From: Bordetella parapertussis
GTDB lineage: Bacteria; Pseudomonadota; Gammaproteobacteria; Burkholderiales; Casimicrobiaceae
Direction of reading: 5' to 3'
Assembly (NCBI GenBank): GCA_943331295.2
Contig: CALQLA020000022.1
Span: 1 to 64,000, forward strand
Length of the DNA: 64,000 nucleotides
The position numbers and the translations under genes are program-made. The first letter of the stretch is position 1, and every line of letters begins with the position of its first letter. The notes under the pieces were generated by a model that saw nothing but the letters and a program-made list of their open reading frames with translations, made no database searches and had not been told where the DNA came from. Below, piece by piece: positions 1 through 9,070 of the stretch.

Positions 1-189
1 GCACACTTGGACGGTCTCTTGGCTTGGTAACCGGAGACTCCCCCAAAGGGTTCGTTTGTTCAAGTGCCCCGAGGGGGATCAACCCGCTTCCATCACGTTG
101 CTTGATCAAAAAGCAACGGATTGCCATCGCGCAGGGTGACCATACTCAGCACGGCGGGTAAACGAAGACGCGCGCCAACAGGCTAAGGA

Positions 190-561
190 CTAATGGCAGA
201 CGGTTCCGGCCGACGAAAATACCTGCCGCGTGATTGGCTTTGTCTGTGTGATGCCGCTGACGGTGTAGGCAAAGGACGCGTTGTTACCATCTGAGAAGGT
301 AAAGGTCGCTGTGCCGACCTCAATCGGGGTTACCTTGGCCGGATCGTAAGGCGCAGAGTTGTACGCAGGGCCAGTGCCTGTGTACAACGTGCCGGAATAG
401 GTGTTGGAGTCCACTTTATTCGCTCCGGTGACTAGCCATAGCGGCTTACCGTCGAAGTCGAAGGTGAACCATGTCGCGAATATCGCATCGCCTTGGTGCG
501 CGAAGTTGATGCCCCATCCAGGCTCCGCGTTTGGCGGCGCTGCCCACCACATGTCCTGGTA
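190..561 (-). repeat. Second copy of the C-terminal protein module
   Basis: Encodes YQDMWWAAPPNAEPGWGINF through the C-terminus. About two thirds of residues match the first copy by eye. This is a tandem intragenic duplication rather than a nucleotide-level repeat. Confidence 0.85.
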
Positions 562-2025
562 GTTGGTCGCAACCGCGAGGTTCGGCTGGTTGCCCCAGAC
601 GCATGTCGGCATCGACGATCCGAACTGTTCGCGCGTAATCTGTTTGGTCTGCGACATGCCGTTCACCGTATACGTGAATGCCGCGCTATCGCTGTTGGCA
701 AAGGTAAAGGTTACGGACCCCACCTCCATTGCCACGACTTTGCTCGGATCAAATGGCACTGAATAGAACGCAGGACCTGTACCCGTATAGAGCCTCCCAG
801 AATAGGTCGCACCAGATGTCTTGGTGGCCGCCGCGACCAGCCAAAGCGGCTTGCCGTCAACCCCAAACGTGAACCAAGTCGCGAACAAAGTATCGCTTTG
901 GTGAGCGAAGTTGATACCCCATCCGGGTTCCGAATTAGCAGGTGACGCCCACCACATCCCCTGGAAGTTGGAGGCGCCCCCAGGCGGAGCGGGCGGTGCC
1001 ATCGGAGCTACGCTATTGGATGGGCCTGAGGCGACGCTGGTACCGACCAAATTGGCCGCCTTCACCGTGAATACATAGGTGACCCCATTGGTCAGTCCAG
1101 TAATTGTATGGGTCGTGCTCGTGCTACCTGCGTTGATGTCGACGCCACCGCTGGGGTTACTCGTTACAGTGTAGCCAGTAATCGCACTTCCACCATCGCT
1201 GACGGGCGCGGCGAAGCTGACTGTCACCTGGCCGTTGCCAGGATTCGCCACGACGGATGTGGGTGCTGCTGGTGCAAGGACCGCAGGCGCAGGCACCACA
1301 TTCGTTGATGTCAACTTCCAAGTCTCCACGGTGCCAGATGAGTTCGGGCCCGAGAACTGGACAGTGCCAACTCCCTCAGCAAACCAATTGGTCGCCACCG
1401 ACGTAATAGTGGAGGTCTGGCCGTTGCTATTCACTCGGACCGTGACCGTGGTGACCACCTTCAATGCCTGCCACGATCTTGTTCCGTAGTAGTCTCTTAC
1501 CAATTCCATGCCAACGATCTTCGAGCTCGATATGTAGTTCGCGTTGATGACCACTACGTTCGCGTAATCGAACGTCATGTTCCCTGAGGATGTGTACGTG
1601 CTGCCCAGAGCGACAACAGCGGGCGCCATAGTGACCGCTGGCGACATCGTCGCTGTAGCGGAGGTATCGCCGTACCCAGGAACCGGTACGCGACTGACGT
1701 ATGTCTGATACTCGCGCAGACCGCTACCATCGTTTGTCATGTAAGAAACAGAGTACCCGGACTCATTCGAACTGACTCTCTGCACAGGACTCGCTGCGAC
1801 TCCTGTTTGCAACACGACGGGGCTGCCGACCGATATCGTCGATGTGGCCAACGTATCACTCTTGTACGTCCATTGGTTTCCAAGGCTTAGTGGATAGTAT
1901 CGGGAAATGGAAAGGGTCTGAGAGGAAACCGGCAGTGCGGTGGCAATCCCGCATGCCAGAACCGCTAGTTGAAGAGATTGAAGTATCAACGAACGAATGC
2001 TCTTAGTACCTACGATGCGGGCCAA
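190..2025 (-). CDS. Secreted protein with FN3 domain and two C-terminal repeat modules
   Basis: Probable exported surface or extracellular protein of unknown function. The open frame runs up to a GTG at 2247 (685 codons), but a hydrophobic export signal (LAVLACGIATALPVSSQ) lies about 90 codons inside it, so I place the start at a TTG at 2025; an ATG at 2115 is an alternative. After the signal comes a region of about 220 residues that I do not recognise. Next is a fibronectin type III domain (begins APAAPTSVVANPGNGQVTVS, contains GYTVTSNPSG and YVFTVKAAN) and then two copies of a 125-residue module, each with WGINFAHQ, ATWFTF, DGKPLWLV and TGTGPA. Such modules occur at the C-termini of secreted proteins of Burkholderiales; their role is not known to me. 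It is isolated next to an insertion sequence. Confidence 0.7.
   Translation of the reverse strand: MARIVGTKSIRSLILQSLQLAVLACGIATALPVSSQTLSISRYYPLSLGNQWTYKSDTLATSTISVGSPVVLQTGVAASPVQRVSSNESGYSVSYMTNDGSGLREYQTYVSRVPVPGYGDTSATATMSPAVTMAPAVVALGSTYTSSGNMTFDYANVVVINANYISSSKIVGMELVRDYYGTRSWQALKVVTTVTVRVNSNGQTSTITSVATNWFAEGVGTVQFSGPNSSGTVETWKLTSTNVVPAPAVLAPAAPTSVVANPGNGQVTVSFAAPVSDGGSAITGYTVTSNPSGGVDINAGSTSTTHTITGLTNGVTYVFTVKAANLVGTSVASGPSNSVAPMAPPAPPGGASNFQGMWWASPANSEPGWGINFAHQSDTLFATWFTFGVDGKPLWLVAAATKTSGATYSGRLYTGTGPAFYSVPFDPSKVVAMEVGSVTFTFANSDSAAFTYTVNGMSQTKQITREQFGSSMPTCVWGNQPNLAVATNYQDMWWAAPPNAEPGWGINFAHQGDAIFATWFTFDFDGKPLWLVTGANKVDSNTYSGTLYTGTGPAYNSAPYDPAKVTPIEVGTATFTFSDGNNASFAYTVSGITQTKPITRQVFSSAGTVCH
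562..966 (-). repeat. First copy of the C-terminal protein module
   Basis: Encodes FQGMWWASPANSEPGWGINF and the following stretch. It is collinear with the second copy at 190-561: MWWA, EPGWGINFAHQ, FATWFTF, DGKPLWLV, YSG.LYTGTGPA, EVG..TFTF and TYTV.G..QTK.ITR are shared. This copy has a short linker containing TCVWGNQPNL before the next copy. Confidence 0.85.
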
Positions 2026-2473
2026 TGTAAGAACAACCCTTGCTACATGAGGCCTAGCCACATCGGACGCCGTAGATTCCGGGAGCAAGCTTTCACATTG
2101 GGCAAACATAGACATTTTTCCTAGAGCTTTGAAGTGGTGCAACCCAAGAAGCGCAAATTTGTCAAAACATTTTGTCGTAGCGTGGCCGAATTGGCGTGAG
2201 TGGTCAGGCGACTCCGTGGACATGCATCTTTCCGAGGGGGTGGTCACGAATTAGCCTCACGTTATGCTTTCCCCATCTTTATGCTGCCGCGCGAGGGAAT
2301 GACGACACCCTCGCCAGTGAATCTATGGCACTGGCCGGCCCTGCTCTCAAGAGCAGGCCTTGCCGAGCATTCGCTGAGGCAATTGTCTGCCTCGGATTCC
2401 AGGGAAGCTTGCGCTAGATCAAGCGGGAACTAGATGTCGTAAGCTTCTCCGTCAAATGGACAGTACTAAACTG
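2026..2473. other. Intergenic region between secreted protein and IS remnant
   Basis: About 450 bases without a convincing gene. It holds the possible 5' extension of the secreted-protein frame (to 2247) and the junction where the IS3 transposase frame runs into non-transposase sequence. No RNA gene or clear terminator was seen. Confidence 0.5.
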
Positions 2474-3157
2474 GCACTCGTCGCGGAACTTGCCGTTGAA
2501 CGATTCATTGGTCCCGTTCTGCCAGGGCTTGCCGGGGTCGATGACCGCCGTGTAGATCCGATTCGCCGTTAGGCAGTGCAGAACAGCGTGGCTGACGAAT
2601 TCCGGGCCGCTATCCGAGCGCAGGAAGGCTGGAGCGCCATGCAGACCGATCAGGCGCGCGAGCACGTCGATCACGCGGCGTGAACGGATCGAGCCGGCCA
2701 CGTCGATCGCCAGGCACTCATGAGTGAACTCGTCGACCACCGTCAGGCATTTGATCTGCTGCCCGTTGGCGCAGGCGTCGGAGACGAAGTCATACGCCCA
2801 GATGTGGTTAGCTGCCCGAGGTGGCAGGGGTCTGGGCCGACCTGTCGCAACACGCCGCCGCGGCCGACGCCGGGGAAGCTGCAACCCAGCTTGGTACCAG
2901 AGCCGCTCAGCGCGCGACGCGCTCACGGTCAAGCCCTCGCGGCGCAGGAAGATCCGAATCCGACGGTAGCCATAGCGCGGATACTGCGATGACAGCCGTT
3001 TCATCGCCGCCATCACCGGCGCGTCCTTCGCCGGCTGCCGGAGCTCGTAAGACAAGGTGGAACGGGCCATGCCCATCAGCCACCAGGCGCGTCGCTTCGG
3101 GATTCCACGCCCACAACCGTAGGCACATTGCTCCCGCCGCCCCTGCGGGCTCACCAC
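2414..3157 (-). pseudogene. IS3-family transposase orfB, 3'-truncated
   Basis: Integrase-core transposase of the IS407 group. It begins at a GTG overlapping the end of orfA. The N-terminal HTH_21 part (ARSTLSYELRQPAKDAPVMA, YPRYGYRRIRIFLRREG) is followed by the rve integrase core, with DDE residues in IWAYDFVSD, LRSDSGPEF and NESFNGKF. The family normally continues another 40 to 50 residues with a conserved R-P-H-SSLGY tail. Here this is replaced after RDECQF by an unrelated 17-residue tail ending at 2414. The catalytic triad is present but the protein is incomplete and orfA is broken, so transposition is unlikely. Confidence 0.8.
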
Positions 3158-3470
3158 TTTTCTTGGTTGACCTCCTTCATGACCTCGATCTCAAAGTAGC
3201 GCTCGGCCAACAGCTCTCTTTTAGCTTGGCGTTCTCCGACGAAAGTGCCTTCAGGCGCTTCACATCAGCCGGCTCCCACTACCCGAAATACTTACGCCAG
3301 GCGTAGATCGTCTGCTCGCTGATCTTGCTCTTCTTGGCGGCCTCGGCGACCGATGTCCGGTCTGCCTCGCGCAAGATCGCAACCATCTGCTCGTCGCTAA
3401 ATCGGCTCTTCCTTTCGGTTGAAGAGCTATCTTTCCAGAAATCAGCCGTCCGAAAATGTCGGGCAGGTCA
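2474..3470 (-). mobile_element. Truncated IS3-family (IS407-like) element
   Basis: The outer end on the right carries TGACCTGCCCGACATTTTC reading inward from 3470, typical of a terminal inverted repeat of this IS group. It is followed by a degenerate orfA and an orfB with DDE motifs. The orfB frame loses family similarity right after the catalytic Glu region (NESFNGKFRDEC), and no matching left-hand inverted repeat is seen, so the 3' end of the element is missing. The element is probably immobile. Confidence 0.75.
3158..3424 (-). pseudogene. IS3-family orfA remnant with in-frame stop and frameshift
   Basis: Reading the minus strand gives KSRFSDEQMVAILREADRTS and then AEAAKKSKISEQTIYAWRKYFG, the helix-turn-helix of an IS3 orfA. 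A TAG stop (3279-3281) follows immediately. The same frame continues as DVKRLKALSSENAKLK and then shifts frame near 3210, before LLAERYFEIEVMKEVNQEKW. No ATG, GTG or TTG start is visible at the expected place. Too broken to give the OrfA partner needed by orfB. Confidence 0.8.
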
Positions 3471-3500
3471 GGAGCGTCCCACTGAGTATCTGCATTGAAA

Positions 3501-4529
3501 CTACGAAAGCCAAAGACGCTGTCGGATCAATGCTTTTAGCACTCGTCGCCGGCCTTTGAAGTCAACTGCGTCCGCAAAGAGGTACTCCCAGAAACGCCGC
3601 GATCGGCAACCCGCGCGAACCCTTTTCTTCATTGCGCGGTCGGCGAGCCGGCGGCAAAGTCGGTCAACTTGCAGGCCCTGACCAACGATCTCGCTCCGCA
3701 GGCACAGCCTTGTGGCTGCGAGCATAGGGCATCGGTCGTTGATGGTGCGTAGCTGCTCTACAATGGAAAAATAGCTATCTATCCGGCGCATTATCGCTGC
3801 GTCGTTCCGCTCGCCGGTTATAGATGTCGAATGCCGGCGATAGCTGTATACGACCTTGTCAACGTAGATCACGCGCACCGCGTGAAGAAGACATTCGGTA
3901 GTCCAGCCAATATCCTCATGAACGACATTTTGCAAGAAATTCATCTCATGTTTGGAAAGGAAGTCGCGCCGATAAAAGCTGAGCCAAGGAAAATGTAGAA
4001 ATTCTTTCTGCCGCAAGACGTATCGGATCCACTCTTCACCAGTTACTACGGTAGATGGCTTCGGCTTAGTGCAGATGGTCGCATGGCCGTCATGATCACC
4101 AAGATATGTGGCGTTAAACGTAACGATGTCGGCGCATTCGATACGTGCCGCGTTCAGGATTAGCGAAAGCGCACCTTCAACGACCACATCATCGGAATCC
4201 ACAAACCAGACATAGTCACCCGTCGCATGACTGAGTCCAACGTTGCGTGCCACTGATGGTCCGAGATTGTTCTGGACCACTACACGCAATCGAGAGTCCC
4301 GCGCACCGATCCTAGTCAATATGGCGTTGCTCTCGTCCTGTGAGCCATCATCAACAGCGATGATCTCGAAATCACGGCAGTCTTGGCCGAGGAGTGAGTT
4401 GATGCACTCGGCCAAGTGCCGCTCGGCGTTGAACACAGGTACAACGATACTAATTGCAGGATTGGGCATGGTATTCGCACTGGGCGTGAATAAGTTGGGA
4501 AGCAGGACTTGTAATCCAACGAATCGCAT
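3501..4529 (-). CDS. Family 2 glycosyltransferase
   Basis: Cytoplasmic GT-A fold glycosyltransferase that would transfer a sugar from a nucleotide donor during surface polysaccharide or exopolysaccharide assembly. It shows the GT2 start (ISIVVPVFNAERHL), the VDDGS loop near residue 60, NVGLSHATGDYVWFVDSDD with the metal-binding DSDD at 111-114, and a C-terminal basic region. At 342 residues it has the usual length. The first ATG (4529) has a GGAGG 12 bases upstream; an internal ATG at 4469, directly before the catalytic domain, is an alternative start. It lies between an IS remnant and another glycosyltransferase. Donor and acceptor cannot be told. Confidence 0.85.
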   Translation of the reverse strand: MRFVGLQVLLPNLFTPSANTMPNPAISIVVPVFNAERHLAECINSLLGQDCRDFEIIAVDDGSQDESNAILTRIGARDSRLRVVVQNNLGPSVARNVGLSHATGDYVWFVDSDDVVVEGALSLILNAARIECADIVTFNATYLGDHDGHATICTKPKPSTVVTGEEWIRYVLRQKEFLHFPWLSFYRRDFLSKHEMNFLQNVVHEDIGWTTECLLHAVRVIYVDKVVYSYRRHSTSITGERNDAAIMRRIDSYFSIVEQLRTINDRCPMLAATRLCLRSEIVGQGLQVDRLCRRLADRAMKKRVRAGCRSRRFWEYLFADAVDFKGRRRVLKALIRQRLWLS

Positions 4530-4808
4530 GTTGGTCTTGCGCCTCCTGCGCGATCACCGACATGCCTCTCGCACGATCTCATCAGCCGCCATTACTGCAG
4601 ATCAATAGATTACGGCGATGCCAACTGACTGGTCATGTTCGCCGTCATTAACTCTTCTGCAACGCCGCGCGGGTGTATGCCTGCTTTCATCCCTAGAGGT
4701 TCGCTGCCATTCTCGCACTTGCGCCTACCTAAAGGGCGACGAACTGCGTGGGTCTAAGCTTTCTCCCCGAAACTCAACTTCGCAGAACAATCTTTCACCT
4801 GCACTGAT

Positions 4809-5645
4809 TCACCCAATCCCAGCACCGGGGCCGGCTAGCCCCAGACGTTCGCCAAGTTCTCTAAGGTAGACAACGGACGGTCCATTGCCATGGATGATAC
4901 AGGGGCGTTGGCCCGTTGCGAGTAGATGCACGCGGCCGTCATTCCGATCAACACTGAGTTCGACATCACTTACCCCAACGAGCGGCAGAAAGAACGTACA
5001 TTGGGTGTCGAGATCTACCGCGTCCGGATGGCTCAGAAAGTATCTGGTCATCGCCAGTTGATCGTCGTCCGTCGTCTGGAGTCCGATTGCTCTGATCATC
5101 GTGCGAATGTCGGAAACATGGCCGATGACGCTGCCACTGTTTAGGAATCTGAATGGAGTAGATGAGGGGGGGTAGCGATCGGCCAGTTCCGGATCGGGAT
5201 AGCAGATCTTCTCCGCGGAAAAGATGATCCGCGCCCCGCTCTCCCGGAATTTTTGGAGAATCTCGCGCTCGTTGGCCAGCATGAGTACATCATAGGCGTC
5301 GATGAACACCATCACATCGTCATTGGGCAGGCGCTGCAAATCGAGATATTCGGCCGTCCACAAATACTTGTTGCCAAATCCCTGCCACAAATTGTTGATT
5401 CCCAACACATGAATCCCTACCCCATTTCGGTGGCAGGATGCACTCAGGGCCTCGAGTTCAGGGCAGTGTCGGGTTGCCACCGTGTAGACATGCAGTTTCT
5501 GCTCAGGCGGAGGCAGAAACACGGCGTTCAGGCGTTGCGAATCTGCCTTTTGGTACATATCCCTGTAGCGTGTCTTGTACCGACGGCGCGTCAGCCAGTA
5601 GGTGAGGGCGGCGGCGATGGCGGCAGCGATTAAGGCTAAGCTCAT
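4809..5645 (-). CDS. PLOD-type (lysyl-hydroxylase-like) glycosyltransferase with N-terminal membrane anchor
   Basis: Predicted membrane-anchored glycosyltransferase. Residues 2-18 form one hydrophobic helix followed by basic residues (TRRRYKTRYR). The body resembles the glycosyltransferase domain of procollagen lysyl hydroxylases: KLHVYTVATRH, NKYLWTAEYL, the metal-binding VMVFIDAYDVLML (DxxD at 116-119), RFLNSGSVIGH, a DDDQ motif near 193 and LDTQCTFF. In the eukaryotic enzymes the corresponding residues bind Mn-UDP-sugar. At 278 residues it is a stand-alone GT domain with no hydroxylase part. The start is well supported by GGAGG six bases before the ATG. The acceptor is unknown; the context suggests a cell-surface glycan or glycoprotein. 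Confidence 0.65.
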   Translation of the reverse strand: MSLALIAAAIAAALTYWLTRRRYKTRYRDMYQKADSQRLNAVFLPPPEQKLHVYTVATRHCPELEALSASCHRNGVGIHVLGINNLWQGFGNKYLWTAEYLDLQRLPNDDVMVFIDAYDVLMLANEREILQKFRESGARIIFSAEKICYPDPELADRYPPSSTPFRFLNSGSVIGHVSDIRTMIRAIGLQTTDDDQLAMTRYFLSHPDAVDLDTQCTFFLPLVGVSDVELSVDRNDGRVHLLATGQRPCIIHGNGPSVVYLRELGERLGLAGPGAGIG

Positions 5646-6076
5646 GACATCCTCCGTGATCGCACGACCCGAATTTCGATGCTTCTGCTTCAGCTGGCTG
5701 CCTTGCGCTCGCTAGATTGTGCTCGTGCCCTCGGCGATGCGACCCAGAAAACTGTGCGAATATGGAGTCTTGGGGGGAGCGCTCGACATACGCCCCGCCC
5801 CCCCGTACGGTCGTACTGAACAGAGATGTGGTGCACGACGTTCCGTCCGCCTACAGCATAAGCTCCGATTATCTCATTGTGAGGCTTCTGCATACATCAA
5901 TCATCATCGCAACCAGCCCGCGGGCAGCGCTGTTACAGGCCTCCACCAGTGGCGATTTCCGGAAGATACTGCGTGCGAATATTGCGTAGAATATGTTCCT
6001 CCGCTGCGGGTAGGCAGCGGCCGAACGGCTAATCAAGCGGCAGCGTCGCTGCGCAGCACAGTGGAATGGTTGTAAG
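5646..6076. other. Divergent intergenic region
   Basis: About 430 bases between a leftward glycosyltransferase and a rightward O-antigen ligase-like gene. It must contain both promoters. Open frames here lack coding character. I see no RNA gene and no repeat. Confidence 0.5.
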
Positions 6077-7405
6077 ATGAAACGGGAGTCTGGATACGCA
6101 TTTGCAACCGCGCAAGCTATCTTGGCCTGCGCCCTTTTTTCCTATCCAGCTTCCATGCTGGTGGCTCGCGGCGTCCCAAGCGTAGCAGTCGCAGTAATAC
6201 TAATCGGTTCGATGCTTTTGTTGCCCTTCGCCATTGCGCGGCGTGCGCAACTCGCTTGTCCCGAGGATCTCGCGCCAGTGGCGGGACTTTTCTTGTTCCT
6301 GGCCATTGGTGCCCTGGGCGCTTCGATGTGGCATTCGCCGATGTGGCTAATCGTGAACTACACGCGACTCTTTGCCGCACTTGCAGTAATCGCCGCCATC
6401 CGGATGCTTAGGCCACCCGAGTGGGTCTTCTACGCCGGATGTGCGATCGGAGCGACGGGTGCCGGCGGATTCGCGATATGGCAGGTCATGTTTGACGGGG
6501 CCCTCCGCGCATCCGGTCCCGACAGCTATTTCGGCTGGCAACGCGCCACAATATTCGGTGCGTTGTCCGTAGTGCTTGGTTTCCTGCCGATCCTCGCCGA
6601 CCCGCCCGGATGGAAGCTACCCGGACGAATCCTTCTCGGTACTGGATTGATCGGTGGCGCCACGGCCGCGGTACTGTCTGGATCGCGCGGCGCGTGGCTC
6701 GCGTGTGCGGTTTTGGCCCTTTGGCGCGTCGGCCGCAGCGGACTTTGGGCTGCTTCGCTCATGCTCGTCGTGATAATCGGAGCTTCAATCATGCTCCCCG
6801 TTCTATCAAACCGCTGGGACGCGGCGTTCGCCGACATCATGGTCTACCAGAGCGGACACTCGGAGACGTCGCTCGGATTACGTTTCAGCATGTGGAAAGC
6901 GGCGGCGGCGGCGTTCGCGTCGCATCCGCTGTTTGGCGTCGGCCCCATGGGCTTCCGCGACGTGCTGGTCGAGCGGGTTCGGGACGGTCTTGCCTCGGCG
7001 ACGATACTGAAGTTCGATCACGCGCACAGTGATCTCATGCATACGCTGGCGACAGGTGGTATGGTTCAGTTGACCGGCTTGGTTGCGGCATTCTGGCTTC
7101 CGTGGCGCTATTTCCGGCACGTAGCCATCGAACGGACCTCGCCAGCGGCCCGTGCCGGGATGGCGCTCATTGTCCTCTTCCTCGTTCTCGGCTTGGCTGA
7201 TAGCATGTTTGTCCACCGGATTGCGTTGACCGCGTATGTGGTTAGTGTCGCGGTACTTATCGGCTATGCAGGGATTAACGGCGACGCATTGTCGCCGCGC
7301 AGCGGTGACCTCGGTAACCGCTGCGCGGCTTTGAATGCTGCTGAAGGCGCCGGCCCGTCAAGAGTAGGCATCGGCCAAATATGGCGACTCAGACCATGGC
7401 CATGA
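6077..7405 (+). CDS. O-antigen ligase/polymerase (Wzy/WaaL-type) membrane protein
   Basis: Polytopic inner-membrane protein with about ten hydrophobic segments and a large periplasmic loop, the layout of O-antigen ligases and Wzy polymerases. The Wzy_C signature is visible: LSGSRGAWLACAV around residue 200, then SLGLRFSMWKAA, HPLFGVGPMGFRD and FDHAHSDLMHTLATGG, where the His residues fall in the loop needed for ligase or polymerase activity. At 442 residues it is normal for the family. It would join or polymerise undecaprenyl-linked glycans. The C-terminal 50 residues are hydrophilic and unusual. It stands alone, with no other lipopolysaccharide genes downstream; an IS21 fragment follows. Confidence 0.8.
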   Translation: MKRESGYAFATAQAILACALFSYPASMLVARGVPSVAVAVILIGSMLLLPFAIARRAQLACPEDLAPVAGLFLFLAIGALGASMWHSPMWLIVNYTRLFAALAVIAAIRMLRPPEWVFYAGCAIGATGAGGFAIWQVMFDGALRASGPDSYFGWQRATIFGALSVVLGFLPILADPPGWKLPGRILLGTGLIGGATAAVLSGSRGAWLACAVLALWRVGRSGLWAASLMLVVIIGASIMLPVLSNRWDAAFADIMVYQSGHSETSLGLRFSMWKAAAAAFASHPLFGVGPMGFRDVLVERVRDGLASATILKFDHAHSDLMHTLATGGMVQLTGLVAAFWLPWRYFRHVAIERTSPAARAGMALIVLFLVLGLADSMFVHRIALTAYVVSVAVLIGYAGINGDALSPRSGDLGNRCAALNAAEGAGPSRVGIGQIWRLRPWP

Positions 7406-7912
7406 TTGGGAAGGTACGGCAGGCGCAACAGCACCAGCAGAAGTCGGTAAGGGCAACGGCGTGGATCACGAGTCTGTCGCAAACTACGATATGAACGCAA
7501 TTGCGGACGTCGGTAGCCGATAAGCATCTTAACCTCCGCAAGTTGGTCTTTCCACGGGGCTAGGCTAGCTCGGGACCCACCAATGCGCGAGTTGCTCATC
7601 GCGCTGCGGTTTCGGATTTACTCCCGCCCCCTCAATAGCGCACGCTGACAAGGAAGGGGGGCTCCGGGTCGTGCAGCACGGCGACGGTCGTGCCCGACGC
7701 GTCAACAACCTCCGGGCTCGGATCAAGGTAGTGGCTGTTGATGAACTCTTGGACTTGTGCCTTGCTTTGGCGCACAGGGCACATCCGAGCACCACTCTTC
7801 GCAGGGTAATCCCTTGGACTCCGCCCCATTGCAGACCGCGCCATGGCCGTGTTGGCTCCACGAACTGCGGTCAGCACTCAGCATTACCGCGCGCTTGATA
7901 TCGCGCTCAACA
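7406..7912. other. Gene-poor region with fragment-like frames
   Basis: About 500 bases between the membrane protein and the istA fragment. A minus-strand frame ending at 7632 (peptide end ATTVAVLHDPEPP-like, then FLVSVRY) might be the tail of a lost gene, but I recognise no family. The region looks like insertion or deletion debris. Confidence 0.4.
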
Positions 7913-8212
7913 CTGGTACTGGCGCGGACGGCCGGGCGTGGCACCTTCGTGCCGCTGACGTTTGCGCCGGGCGAGGCGTTCCAGTTCGACTGGAGCGAGG
8001 ACTGGGCGACGGTGGCCGGCGAGCGGGTCAAGTTGCAGGTGGCGCAGTTCAAGCTGAGCCACAGCCGGGCGTTTCTCCTGCGCGCCTACTTGTTGCAGAC
8101 GCACGAGATGCTGTTCGACGCCCACGTTCATGCGTTCGCGGTGCTTGGCGGCGTTCCTCGCCGCGGCATCTACGACAATATCAAGACGGCGGTCGATCGC
8201 GTCAGGGTGGGT
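7913..8212 (+). pseudogene. istA: IS21-family transposase IstA, internal fragment
   Basis: About 100 codons match the catalytic core of IS21 IstA: GTFVPLTFAPGEAFQFDWSE, then ERVKLQVAQFKLSHSRAF, THEMLFDAHVHAF and GGVPRRGIYDNIKTAVD. The N-terminal DNA-binding part and the C-terminal third are absent, and no istB follows. The similarity stops near 8212, only 60 bases before the 3' end of the oppositely oriented SDR gene. This is a non-functional remnant at the edge between the surface-glycan segment and the catabolic supercluster. Confidence 0.85.
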
Positions 8213-8272
8213 GTCGCGCCGCTGTCGGCCCGACTTGGCGGCAATCCGGTGGCCCCCTTGCGGAACGCAGCC

Positions 8273-9070
8273 TCAGCGCTGATAAACCGCGGTGGCAGGC
8301 TGACCGGCCGTTGATCCCAGGTCGATGGGAATGGCCGCGCCGTTCATGTCCCTGCCGTGCTCGCTGCAAAGGAAGGCAACCATCGCCGGCACGGTCGTCA
8401 CGAACCGCGACCGGTTGCGCATGGCGAGAAACCTCTCCATCGCGACTTCCCGCGAGACCCCTTCGGTTCGTTCGATTTCCACGATCTGCCGCTCCGCGTT
8501 TTCGCCCAGCATCGAGGACGGGCAGATCGCGTTGCACGTTACGTTCGCCCCCCCGGTCTCCGTCGCGATGGCGCGCGTGAGTCCGATCAGGGCGGTCTTG
8601 GTGGTGACGTAGCTCACGCGGTTCGGCGCACCGAACAGGCCAAGGTTCGACGAGATGTTGACGATCCGTCCCCAACCCGATGCTTTCATGCCGCCCAAGG
8701 TCAGTCGGATGAGGTTGAAGGCAGAGGTCAGGTTGACCGCGACGTCCTGCTCCCAGTGCCCCGGGTCGAATGTCTCTACCGGGCCCATGTGCCTGGAAAC
8801 GGCGTTGTTGACCAGGATGTCGATGCCACCGAACGCACGCCTGCTCTCCAGGACGAGATGCTCGATCTCGGCCAGCGAAGTCAGGTCGGCGGGTATGAAC
8901 TCGACGTTGGCGCCCGTCGTCGCCGCGATGGACTTGCGCTGCGCGCTTATCTTTGACGGGTCGCCGAGTCCCGTCATGACCACGTTGCAGCCTTCCGCGG
9001 CCAGGGACGAAACCAGCGTCAGGCCGAGGCCGGACGTGGAGCCGGTAACAAGCGCGGTTCGACCCTTCAT
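8273..9070 (-). CDS. SDR family NAD(P)-dependent oxidoreductase
   Basis: Classical short-chain dehydrogenase of 265 residues, soluble. It has the Rossmann TGSTSGLG motif at 10-17, NNAV after strand 4, catalytic Ser near 140 (NISSNLGLFG) and Y154xxxK158 (YVTTK). The C-terminal pattern (AMVAFLCSEHGRDMNGAAIP) is typical for 3-hydroxyacyl or 3-hydroxybutyrate-type dehydrogenases. The start is the ATG directly before KGRTALVTGST. It lies 92 bases downstream of a 3-hydroxyisobutyrate-dehydrogenase-like gene on the same strand, so the two probably form an operon oxidising a hydroxy acid. Substrate not assignable. Confidence 0.85.
   Translation of the reverse strand: MKGRTALVTGSTSGLGLTLVSSLAAEGCNVVMTGLGDPSKISAQRKSIAATTGANVEFIPADLTSLAEIEHLVLESRRAFGGIDILVNNAVSRHMGPVETFDPGHWEQDVAVNLTSAFNLIRLTLGGMKASGWGRIVNISSNLGLFGAPNRVSYVTTKTALIGLTRAIATETGGANVTCNAICPSSMLGENAERQIVEIERTEGVSREVAMERFLAMRNRSRFVTTVPAMVAFLCSEHGRDMNGAAIPIDLGSTAGQPATAVYQR

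What the first reader, a model, noticed from the sequence alone, without database searches (positions are those of the whole stretch)
4809..5645. Bacterial stand-alone PLOD-type glycosyltransferase
The protein has FIDAYD, FLNSG, DDDQ and DTQCTFF in the order found in the glycosyltransferase domain of lysyl hydroxylases, plus an N-terminal membrane helix. Bacterial members are little studied. It sits beside a GT2 and a Wzy/WaaL-type protein, so it may decorate a surface glycan rather than collagen-like protein.
Basis: partly seen in the sequence, partly recalled or inferred. Interest (0 to 1): 0.5.

Follow-up and report, generated by a model that had tools for sequence, protein, structure and literature searches.

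The report
Bacterial stand-alone collagen-type sugar transferase
A bacterium carries, next to genes for its outer surface sugars, a small membrane-tethered version of the enzyme domain that animals use to put sugars on collagen, probably used here to build a surface glycan rather than to modify collagen.

Summary
The gene is real: window 4809-5645, minus strand, 278 aa. It matches Pfam GT_PLOD (E 1.2e-48) and human LH3 (E 5.8e-33). Of 20 LH3 functional positions checked, 15 are identical. Exceptions include the diphosphate-contacting Lys259 (Val here) and the UDP-covering glycoloop, cut from 13 to 5 residues. The loop has 12-15 residues in 30 of 34 family rows with a long C-terminal extension (hydroxylase where tested) and 4-5 in 22 of 37 rows without one, including this gene. 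An N-terminal anchor probably leaves the enzyme cytosolic. The gene lies in a low-GC segment between IS remnants with a GT2 and a Wzy_C ligase; four of six Wzy_C relatives were read, and all lie with LPS-core genes. No GT25 or PLOD-type hydroxylase was found in the genome, although Gly-X-Y proteins exist. Best reading: a short-loop, metal-dependent, probably UDP-glucose transferase for LPS or another surface glycan. Activity and acceptor are inferred; the tree does not place the gene firmly.

The parts
4809..5645 (-). GT_PLOD glycosyltransferase, 278 aa; N-terminal anchor (helix 3-38 of the model, hydrophobic part about 3-18 by eye), catalytic GT-A domain about 48-267
   Evidence: Pfam PF25342 E 1.2e-48; LH3 E 5.8e-33; AlphaFold2 model pLDDT 91.7; LH3/R699 Z 28.6-32.0
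5289..5300 (-). DxxD metal motif D116-A-Y-D119 (LH3 D112/Y114/D115)
   Evidence: alignment to LH3; both Asp invariant in 71 rows
5367..5387 (-). shortened glycoloop W87-QGFGN-K93 (5 residues between Trp and Lys; 13 in LH3)
5058..5069 (-). DDDQ 193-196 (holds the LH3 D190, D191, Q192 equivalents)
4881..4892 (-). HGNG 252-255 (LH3 H253, N255, G256); the following Lys259 equivalent is Val258
3501..4529 (-). GT2 glycosyltransferase, downstream on the same strand
   Evidence: Pfam PF00535 E 8.9e-33; best NCBIfam model PRK10073 at 237 bits, below its cut-off of 423
6077..7405 (+). Wzy_C family O-antigen ligase/polymerase-like membrane protein, divergent
   Evidence: Pfam PF04932 E 4.6e-17; several hydrophobic stretches
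2414..3157 (-). part of an IS3-family transposase, on one side of the segment
   Evidence: rve and HTH_21; NF033516 at 162 bits (cut-off 160) over 101-329 of 369 positions
7757..8314 (+). IS21-family transposase remnant on the other side
   Evidence: NF033546 at 112 bits, below its cut-off of 160, over 97 residues only

Best explanation
A membrane-anchored, cytosol-facing, metal-dependent retaining glycosyltransferase of the PLOD GT family, in the short-loop form common among bacterial members without a C-terminal hydroxylase. It most likely takes a hexose (probably glucose) from UDP-hexose, held by D116/Y118/D119/H252 with a divalent metal and W87, and transfers it to a sugar of a lipid-linked surface glycan (LPS core or O-antigen intermediate) built with the neighbouring GT2 and joined by the Wzy_C ligase. 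It does not depend on hydroxylysine. Shown: family, predicted fold, conserved donor site, short loop, gene setting. Inferred: orientation, donor, alpha linkage, acceptor, activity.
For: GT_PLOD by HMM, LH3 by sequence, the profile of the family hits only LH3 and R699 in the PDB at E 0.01 or better, and the predicted fold agrees. 15 of 20 LH3 functional positions are identical, including D112, Y114, D115, E141, N165, D190, D191, Q192, H253, N255, G256 and W75 (roles from passages of PMC6082870 and PMC10342707). R699 makes alpha-1,2-linked kojibiose from UDP-Glc (PMC11838735 abstract and part of the results), so a retaining reaction is expected. No Lys/Arg lies in residues 1-3 and seven in 19-35, which by the positive-inside rule puts the enzyme in the cytosol, where UDP-sugars are. 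The neighbours are glycan genes. In 3 genomes of the same family the Wzy_C relative lies beside a GT2 and behind an ABC transporter that is MsbA in the two tested; in one genome of the order it lies near a KDO transferase and GalE. No GT25 was found in the genome (the same search rings in 2 other genomes), and no PLOD-type hydroxylase with one single-sequence query (the control is that query finding its own genome).
Against: LH3 Lys259, which contacts the UDP diphosphate, is Val258 here; of 64 rows examined, window included, 53 have a Lys/Arg within +2 to +6 after the HGNG site and the window does not. Trp145, essential in LH3, is Tyr. The gene sits between IS remnants near a contig start, so it may be a relic. 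Wzy_C relatives are only 25-31% identical; two of the six were not read. The GT2 matches are mostly generic, and the surroundings of its best ones (G080, G072) were not read. By eye, none of the 23 bacterial GT_PLOD loci printed has the window's GT2/GT_PLOD/Wzy_C arrangement. Nothing was assayed.
Confidence: 0.5

Rival explanations
1. It glycosylates a collagen-like (Gly-X-Y) protein of the same cell, as LH3 does.
For: The genome encodes Gly-X-Y stretches on contigs C107, C2 and C3, and the C2 protein has GDKGDRGEKGD with Lys in the Y position. One gammaproteobacterial MAG (L102) carries a collagen-like protein, a PLOD-type hydroxylase and a GT25-GT_PLOD protein in a row.
Against: No GT25 and no PLOD-type hydroxylase (a single-sequence query) were found in the genome, so galactosyl-hydroxylysine would not be made by the known enzymes. 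The one PF13640 hit of the own genome looks by eye like another kind of 2OG protein. The glycoloop is of the short type. The Gly-X-Y genes are on other contigs. The assembly is about 90% complete, so absence is not proof.
Confidence: 0.12
2. It glycosylates another protein, a secreted peptide or a small molecule, as the Bacteroidota context suggests for relatives.
For: A Bacteroidota relative is fused to VKOR and a weak C39 match (L106), another follows an HlyD gene and, by eye, a C39-type ABC transporter (L119), another follows a GH94/glucoamylase giant protein (L107); R699 uses free glucose as acceptor.
Against: No such gene is next to the window's copy; its neighbours are surface-glycan genes.
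Confidence: 0.18
3. It is a decayed or inactive relic on a mobile-element-rich island.
For: Val at the Lys259 site, IS3 and IS21 parts on both sides, GC 57.6% in 1-7700 against 68.9% beyond, present in 1 of 100 relatives, the own genome.
Against: Open frame with a ribosome-binding site, most catalytic residues kept, codon-position GC pattern of a coding gene (GC2 42.7, GC3 64.5).
Confidence: 0.15

Closest known systems
GT domain of human LH3/PLOD3 (Pfam GT_PLOD, PF25342)
   Same: Predicted fold (Z up to 32.0), 79 of 217 aligned residues identical, DxxD, His, two of the poly-Asp residues, HGNG and Trp75 site
   Different: No accessory or hydroxylase domain; glycoloop 5 instead of 13 residues; Lys259 to Val, Trp145 to Tyr, Trp148 to Pro, Asn223 to Val; bacterial membrane anchor
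Mimivirus R699 collagen glucosyltransferase
   Same: Same catalytic domain fold (Z 31.9, rmsd 1.5); acts without a hydroxylase domain
   Different: R699 has a second (accessory) Rossmann domain; its UDP-contacting Lys222 matters (K222E severely impairs it; PMC11838735), while the window protein lacks the Lys at LH3's UDP-contacting site (that the two Lys sites correspond was not tested)
GT_PLOD proteins of Chlamydiota (L096-L098)
   Same: Closest by sequence (36-41%), short loop of 4-5 residues, about 230-280 aa
   Different: Phe in place of Trp87; Lys/Arg kept after HGNG; L097 and L098 begin with signal-peptide-like stretches (my reading); no surface-glycan genes seen by eye beside them
Phage GT25-GT_PLOD-LH proteins (PHROG 61)
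   Same: GT_PLOD domain
   Different: Three-part proteins near collagen-like tail fibre genes; long loop: 12 residues in L008 and 11 in L010 by eye, 12-15 in the IMG/VR rows with a C-terminal extension that could be measured

Membership tests
GT_PLOD (PF25342) | Profile score above the curated cut-off over the whole domain | tested here: met
   165.9 bits against 27, positions 2-234 of 246
GT_PLOD (PF25342) | LH3-type GT-A fold | tested here: met
   Model pLDDT 91.7; LH3 and R699 Z 28.6-32.0 against 14.5 for the next entry
GT_PLOD (PF25342) | DxxD plus His metal site, Tyr stacking on uracil | tested here: met
   D116, Y118, D119, H252
GT_PLOD (PF25342) | Glu141 and Asp190/Asp191 needed for LH3 activity | tested here: met
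   E145, D194, D195; LH3 mutants from passages of PMC10342707
GT_PLOD (PF25342) | Trp145, needed for LH3 activity | tested here: not met
   Tyr149; Tyr or another residue also in many relatives
GT_PLOD (PF25342) | Lys259 contact to the UDP diphosphate | tested here: not met
   V258; it is not universal in the family either: 11 of 64 rows, window included, lack a nearby Lys/Arg
GT_PLOD (PF25342) | UDP-hexose transferase activity | not testable with these tools
   no assay
Collagen-type PLOD GT (LH-linked) | Glycoloop of 12-15 residues (my criterion, from 30 of 34 rows with a long C-terminal extension, and LH3) | tested here: not met
   5 residues, WQGFGNK
Multifunctional lysyl hydroxylase (PLOD) | C-terminal 2OG-Fe(II) lysyl hydroxylase domain | tested here: not met
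   The protein ends about 12 residues after the GT domain; no LH match
Multifunctional lysyl hydroxylase (PLOD) | Accessory Rossmann domain | tested here: not met
   278 aa with a single GT domain
Collagen glucosyltransferase | Collagen-like acceptor with galactosyl-hydroxylysine | tested here: inconclusive
   Gly-X-Y proteins exist; GT25 and PLOD-type LH not found in a 90%-complete assembly

The most novel reading that the evidence does not exclude
Short-loop bacterial PLOD glycosyltransferases form a working branch of surface-glycan (and perhaps peptide) hexosyltransferases. The collagen glucosyltransferase of animals and phages would be a derived form that gained the long glycoloop together with a lysyl hydroxylase partner (the R699 loop was not measured here).
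Probability: 0.25. Interest if true: 0.65.

Novelty: new variant of a known kind. Interest (0 to 1): 0.42.

Why it matters
In the papers I saw, the enzyme family is treated as a collagen modifier. Small bacterial members that lack the hydroxylase, the accessory domain and the long glycoloop give a stripped-down system in which donor binding and acceptor choice can be tested, and suggest where the collagen enzyme came from. If the acceptor is LPS, it adds a glycosyltransferase family to LPS assembly.

Tried and rejected
Single-sequence AlphaFold2 failed (pLDDT 36.6); the 71-row alignment gave a confident model. The first genome-contig scan with the lone protein found nothing, and the plasmid collection gave no match. 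The tree (72 rows) puts the window beside Chlamydiota (support 83/81, not starred) and outside the LH3/phage set (37 rows, 95/95). However, forcing the window into that set is not rejected (p-AU 0.444), so I do not use the tree as evidence on function. The Gly-X-Y hit on C8 is below the cut-off and is a charged tail after a ribosomal-S6-like sequence (my reading); I dropped it as a collagen candidate. I looked for literature on bacterial GT_PLOD enzymes: searches showed no title on that subject among the papers listed; that covers open-licence PMC papers only.

Rows dropped or chosen: of the 80 viral loci kept (of 463 confirmed) I chose 36 for spread, L005 among them, plus L006. Of 44 bacterial loci, L127 was dropped because the frame at its match did not give the domain. 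From those 80 rows, L046 and L105 fell out for a stop or unknown letters and 8 as near-duplicates, leaving 70. The patterns are narrow, so family counts from them are lower bounds.

Full report
What is there. The 837-base frame at 4809-5645 reads on the minus strand as a 278-aa protein. It opens with ATG behind a GGAGG. Residues 48-266 match Pfam GT_PLOD at E 1.2e-48. In the PDB, phmmer finds human LH3 (E 5.8e-33) and mimivirus R699 (E 1.5e-22), then only a chance match at E 0.46. A profile of 71 rows finds only LH3 and R699 at E 0.01 or better.

Fold. The single-sequence model was poor. With an alignment of 71 rows (P0001 plus 70 from loci fetched by the search for related loci) AlphaFold2 gave mean pLDDT 91.7. 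VIA-align 2 puts the LH3 and R699 entries at Z 28.6-32.0; the next entry, a PBCV-1 capsid glycosyltransferase, has Z 14.5. Foldseek agrees.

Active site. I mapped 20 LH3 positions named in PMC6082870 and PMC10342707 (passages read), anchoring the numbering on D112, by local alignment. Fifteen are identical: T46, W75, K89, W92, D112, Y114, D115, E141, N165, D190, D191, Q192, H253, N255, G256. Five are not: V80 falls in the deleted loop, W145 is Tyr, W148 is Pro, N223 is Val and K259 is Val. K259 contacts the UDP diphosphate in LH3. In R699 a Lys (K222) also contacts the UDP phosphate, and K222E severely impairs the enzyme; I did not test whether the two Lys sites correspond. In 53 of 64 rows with enough sequence, window included, a Lys or Arg lies at +2 to +6 after the HGNG-equivalent site; the window has none there, with Arg262 just beyond. 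This is the main mark against activity.

Glycoloop. LH3 has 13 residues between W75 and K89, in the glycoloop that closes over UDP; the window has 5. I measured this for all 71 rows. Of the 34 rows with more than 150 aa after the GT domain, 30 have 12-15, one has 8 (Kaistia), one 7 (Acetobacter), one 5 (a verrucomicrobial protein) and one could not be measured. Of the other 37 rows, window included, 22 have 4-5, two have 7, two have 12 (both run off their contig before the C-terminus), one has 13 and 10 could not be measured. The row with 13 is L102, whose hydroxylase is the neighbouring gene. Some of the 37 are not stand-alone: L099, L106 and L115 have long N-terminal parts, and L102 and L006 have a GT25-like one (by eye in L006). 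The extension is a PLOD-type hydroxylase where I tested a phage protein (L011) and a 2OG-Fe(II) domain in Kaistia; I did not test it row by row. Many rows are related, so this is a pattern rather than a count of independent events. The window shares the short form.

Topology. The first three residues hold no Lys or Arg and residues 19-35 hold seven. By the positive-inside rule (established knowledge) the anchor would leave the enzyme in the cytosol. This is an inference.

Setting. The segment 1-7700 has 57.6% GC against 68.9% for the rest of the window. The GT2, GT_PLOD and Wzy_C genes lie between part of an IS3 transposase and a partial IS21 match. GT_PLOD is in 1 of 100 relatives searched, the window's own genome, 3 of 369 genomes of the class and 2 of 398 of the phylum, own included each time. 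Wzy_C has relatives at E 1e-10 or better in 7 of 100, own included, at 25-31% identity outside the own genome. I read the surroundings of four of the six others. In G022, G026 and G039 (same family) the order is ABC transporter, GT2, Wzy_C protein, then another gene. The transporter scores above the TIGR02203 MsbA cut-off in the two tested. Wzy_C is confirmed in all three and the last gene is GT4 in the one tested. In G022 a putative LPS heptosyltransferase III lies further on, beyond a gene on the other strand. In G066 (same order) a KDO transferase lies upstream, with two other frames between, and GalE is the next gene. So these relatives of the window's ligase sit with LPS-core genes. Identity is low, and I did not read the surroundings of the best GT2 relatives, so this supports but does not prove an LPS role.

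Collagen alternative. The own genome has Pfam Collagen matches above the cut-off on three contigs (C107, C2, C3). The C2 protein contains GDKGDRGEKGD. No GT25 was found, and the same search rings in two other genomes. The L102 hydroxylase as query finds nothing in the own genome while finding itself and one weak match in its own; one single-sequence query can miss distant ones. The one PF13640 match is a different kind of 2OG protein by eye. The assembly is about 90% complete.

Relatives. Named bacterial carriers include Chlamydiota, Stappiaceae, Bacteroidota, Acetobacteraceae, cyanobacteria, Streptomyces and Kaistia (44 loci; a lower bound). The window is closest to Chlamydiota (L096 41%), but the tree does not fix its place.

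Literature. Papers on R699 (PMC11838735 abstract, passages and part of the results; PMC9546862 passages) and LH3 (passages) describe animal and giant-virus enzymes; the R699 papers mention bacterial collagen-modifying enzymes only in general terms in the passages seen. A review of prokaryotic collagens describes glycosylation of BclA and says that in most cases bacterial collagens are not hydroxylated or glycosylated (passages of PMC8968730). I saw no title on bacterial GT_PLOD enzymes in searches.

Verdict. The identity is secure. The short loop, the anchor and the setting make a surface-glycan role the best bet, at about one half. The finding is a new variant of a known kind.

Noticed in passing
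L008 5365-7206, L009 5362-7206, L010 5467-7236, L011 5314-7179 (phages S-CAM9, S-PRM1, CRP-6, S-8S55): Marine phages encode proteins of about 590-620 aa with a GT25 part (Pfam hit in L008), a GT_PLOD part and a PLOD-type lysyl hydroxylase (PDB hit in L011), close downstream of tail-fibre genes with long Gly-X-Y stretches rich in KGQKG. PHROG 61 calls L010 and L011 only 2OG-Fe(II) oxygenase. They look like complete collagen lysine hydroxylation and glycosylation enzymes for phage fibres; 463 IMG/VR stretches encode GT_PLOD relatives.
   Followed up: partly
L102 845-4673 (Gammaproteobacteria MAG APA_bin_21): A collagen-like protein with a YadA-type anchor, a PLOD-type lysyl hydroxylase and a GT25-GT_PLOD fusion lie in a row: a candidate bacterial collagen-modifying operon.
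   Followed up: partly
L003 1438-3113 and L104 2517-4174 (gammaproteobacterial and Legionella MAGs): A GT_PLOD gene with a hydrophobic N-terminus follows a 2OG-Fe(II) oxygenase-like gene in both; in L104 the oxygenase is PF13640.
   Followed up: no
L106 8306-10789 (Dyadobacter tibetensis) and L119 (Sphingobacterium arenae): GT_PLOD is fused to VKOR and a weak C39 match in one, and in the other follows an HlyD gene and, by eye, a C39-type ABC transporter, near proteins with GG-type leader-like stretches: a possible peptide-modifying role.
   Followed up: no
L107 3868-10648 (Chitinophaga eiseniae): GT_PLOD directly follows a 1986-aa GH94/glucoamylase protein; the likeness to cyclic glucan synthases is recalled, not tested.
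   Followed up: no
   Followed up: no
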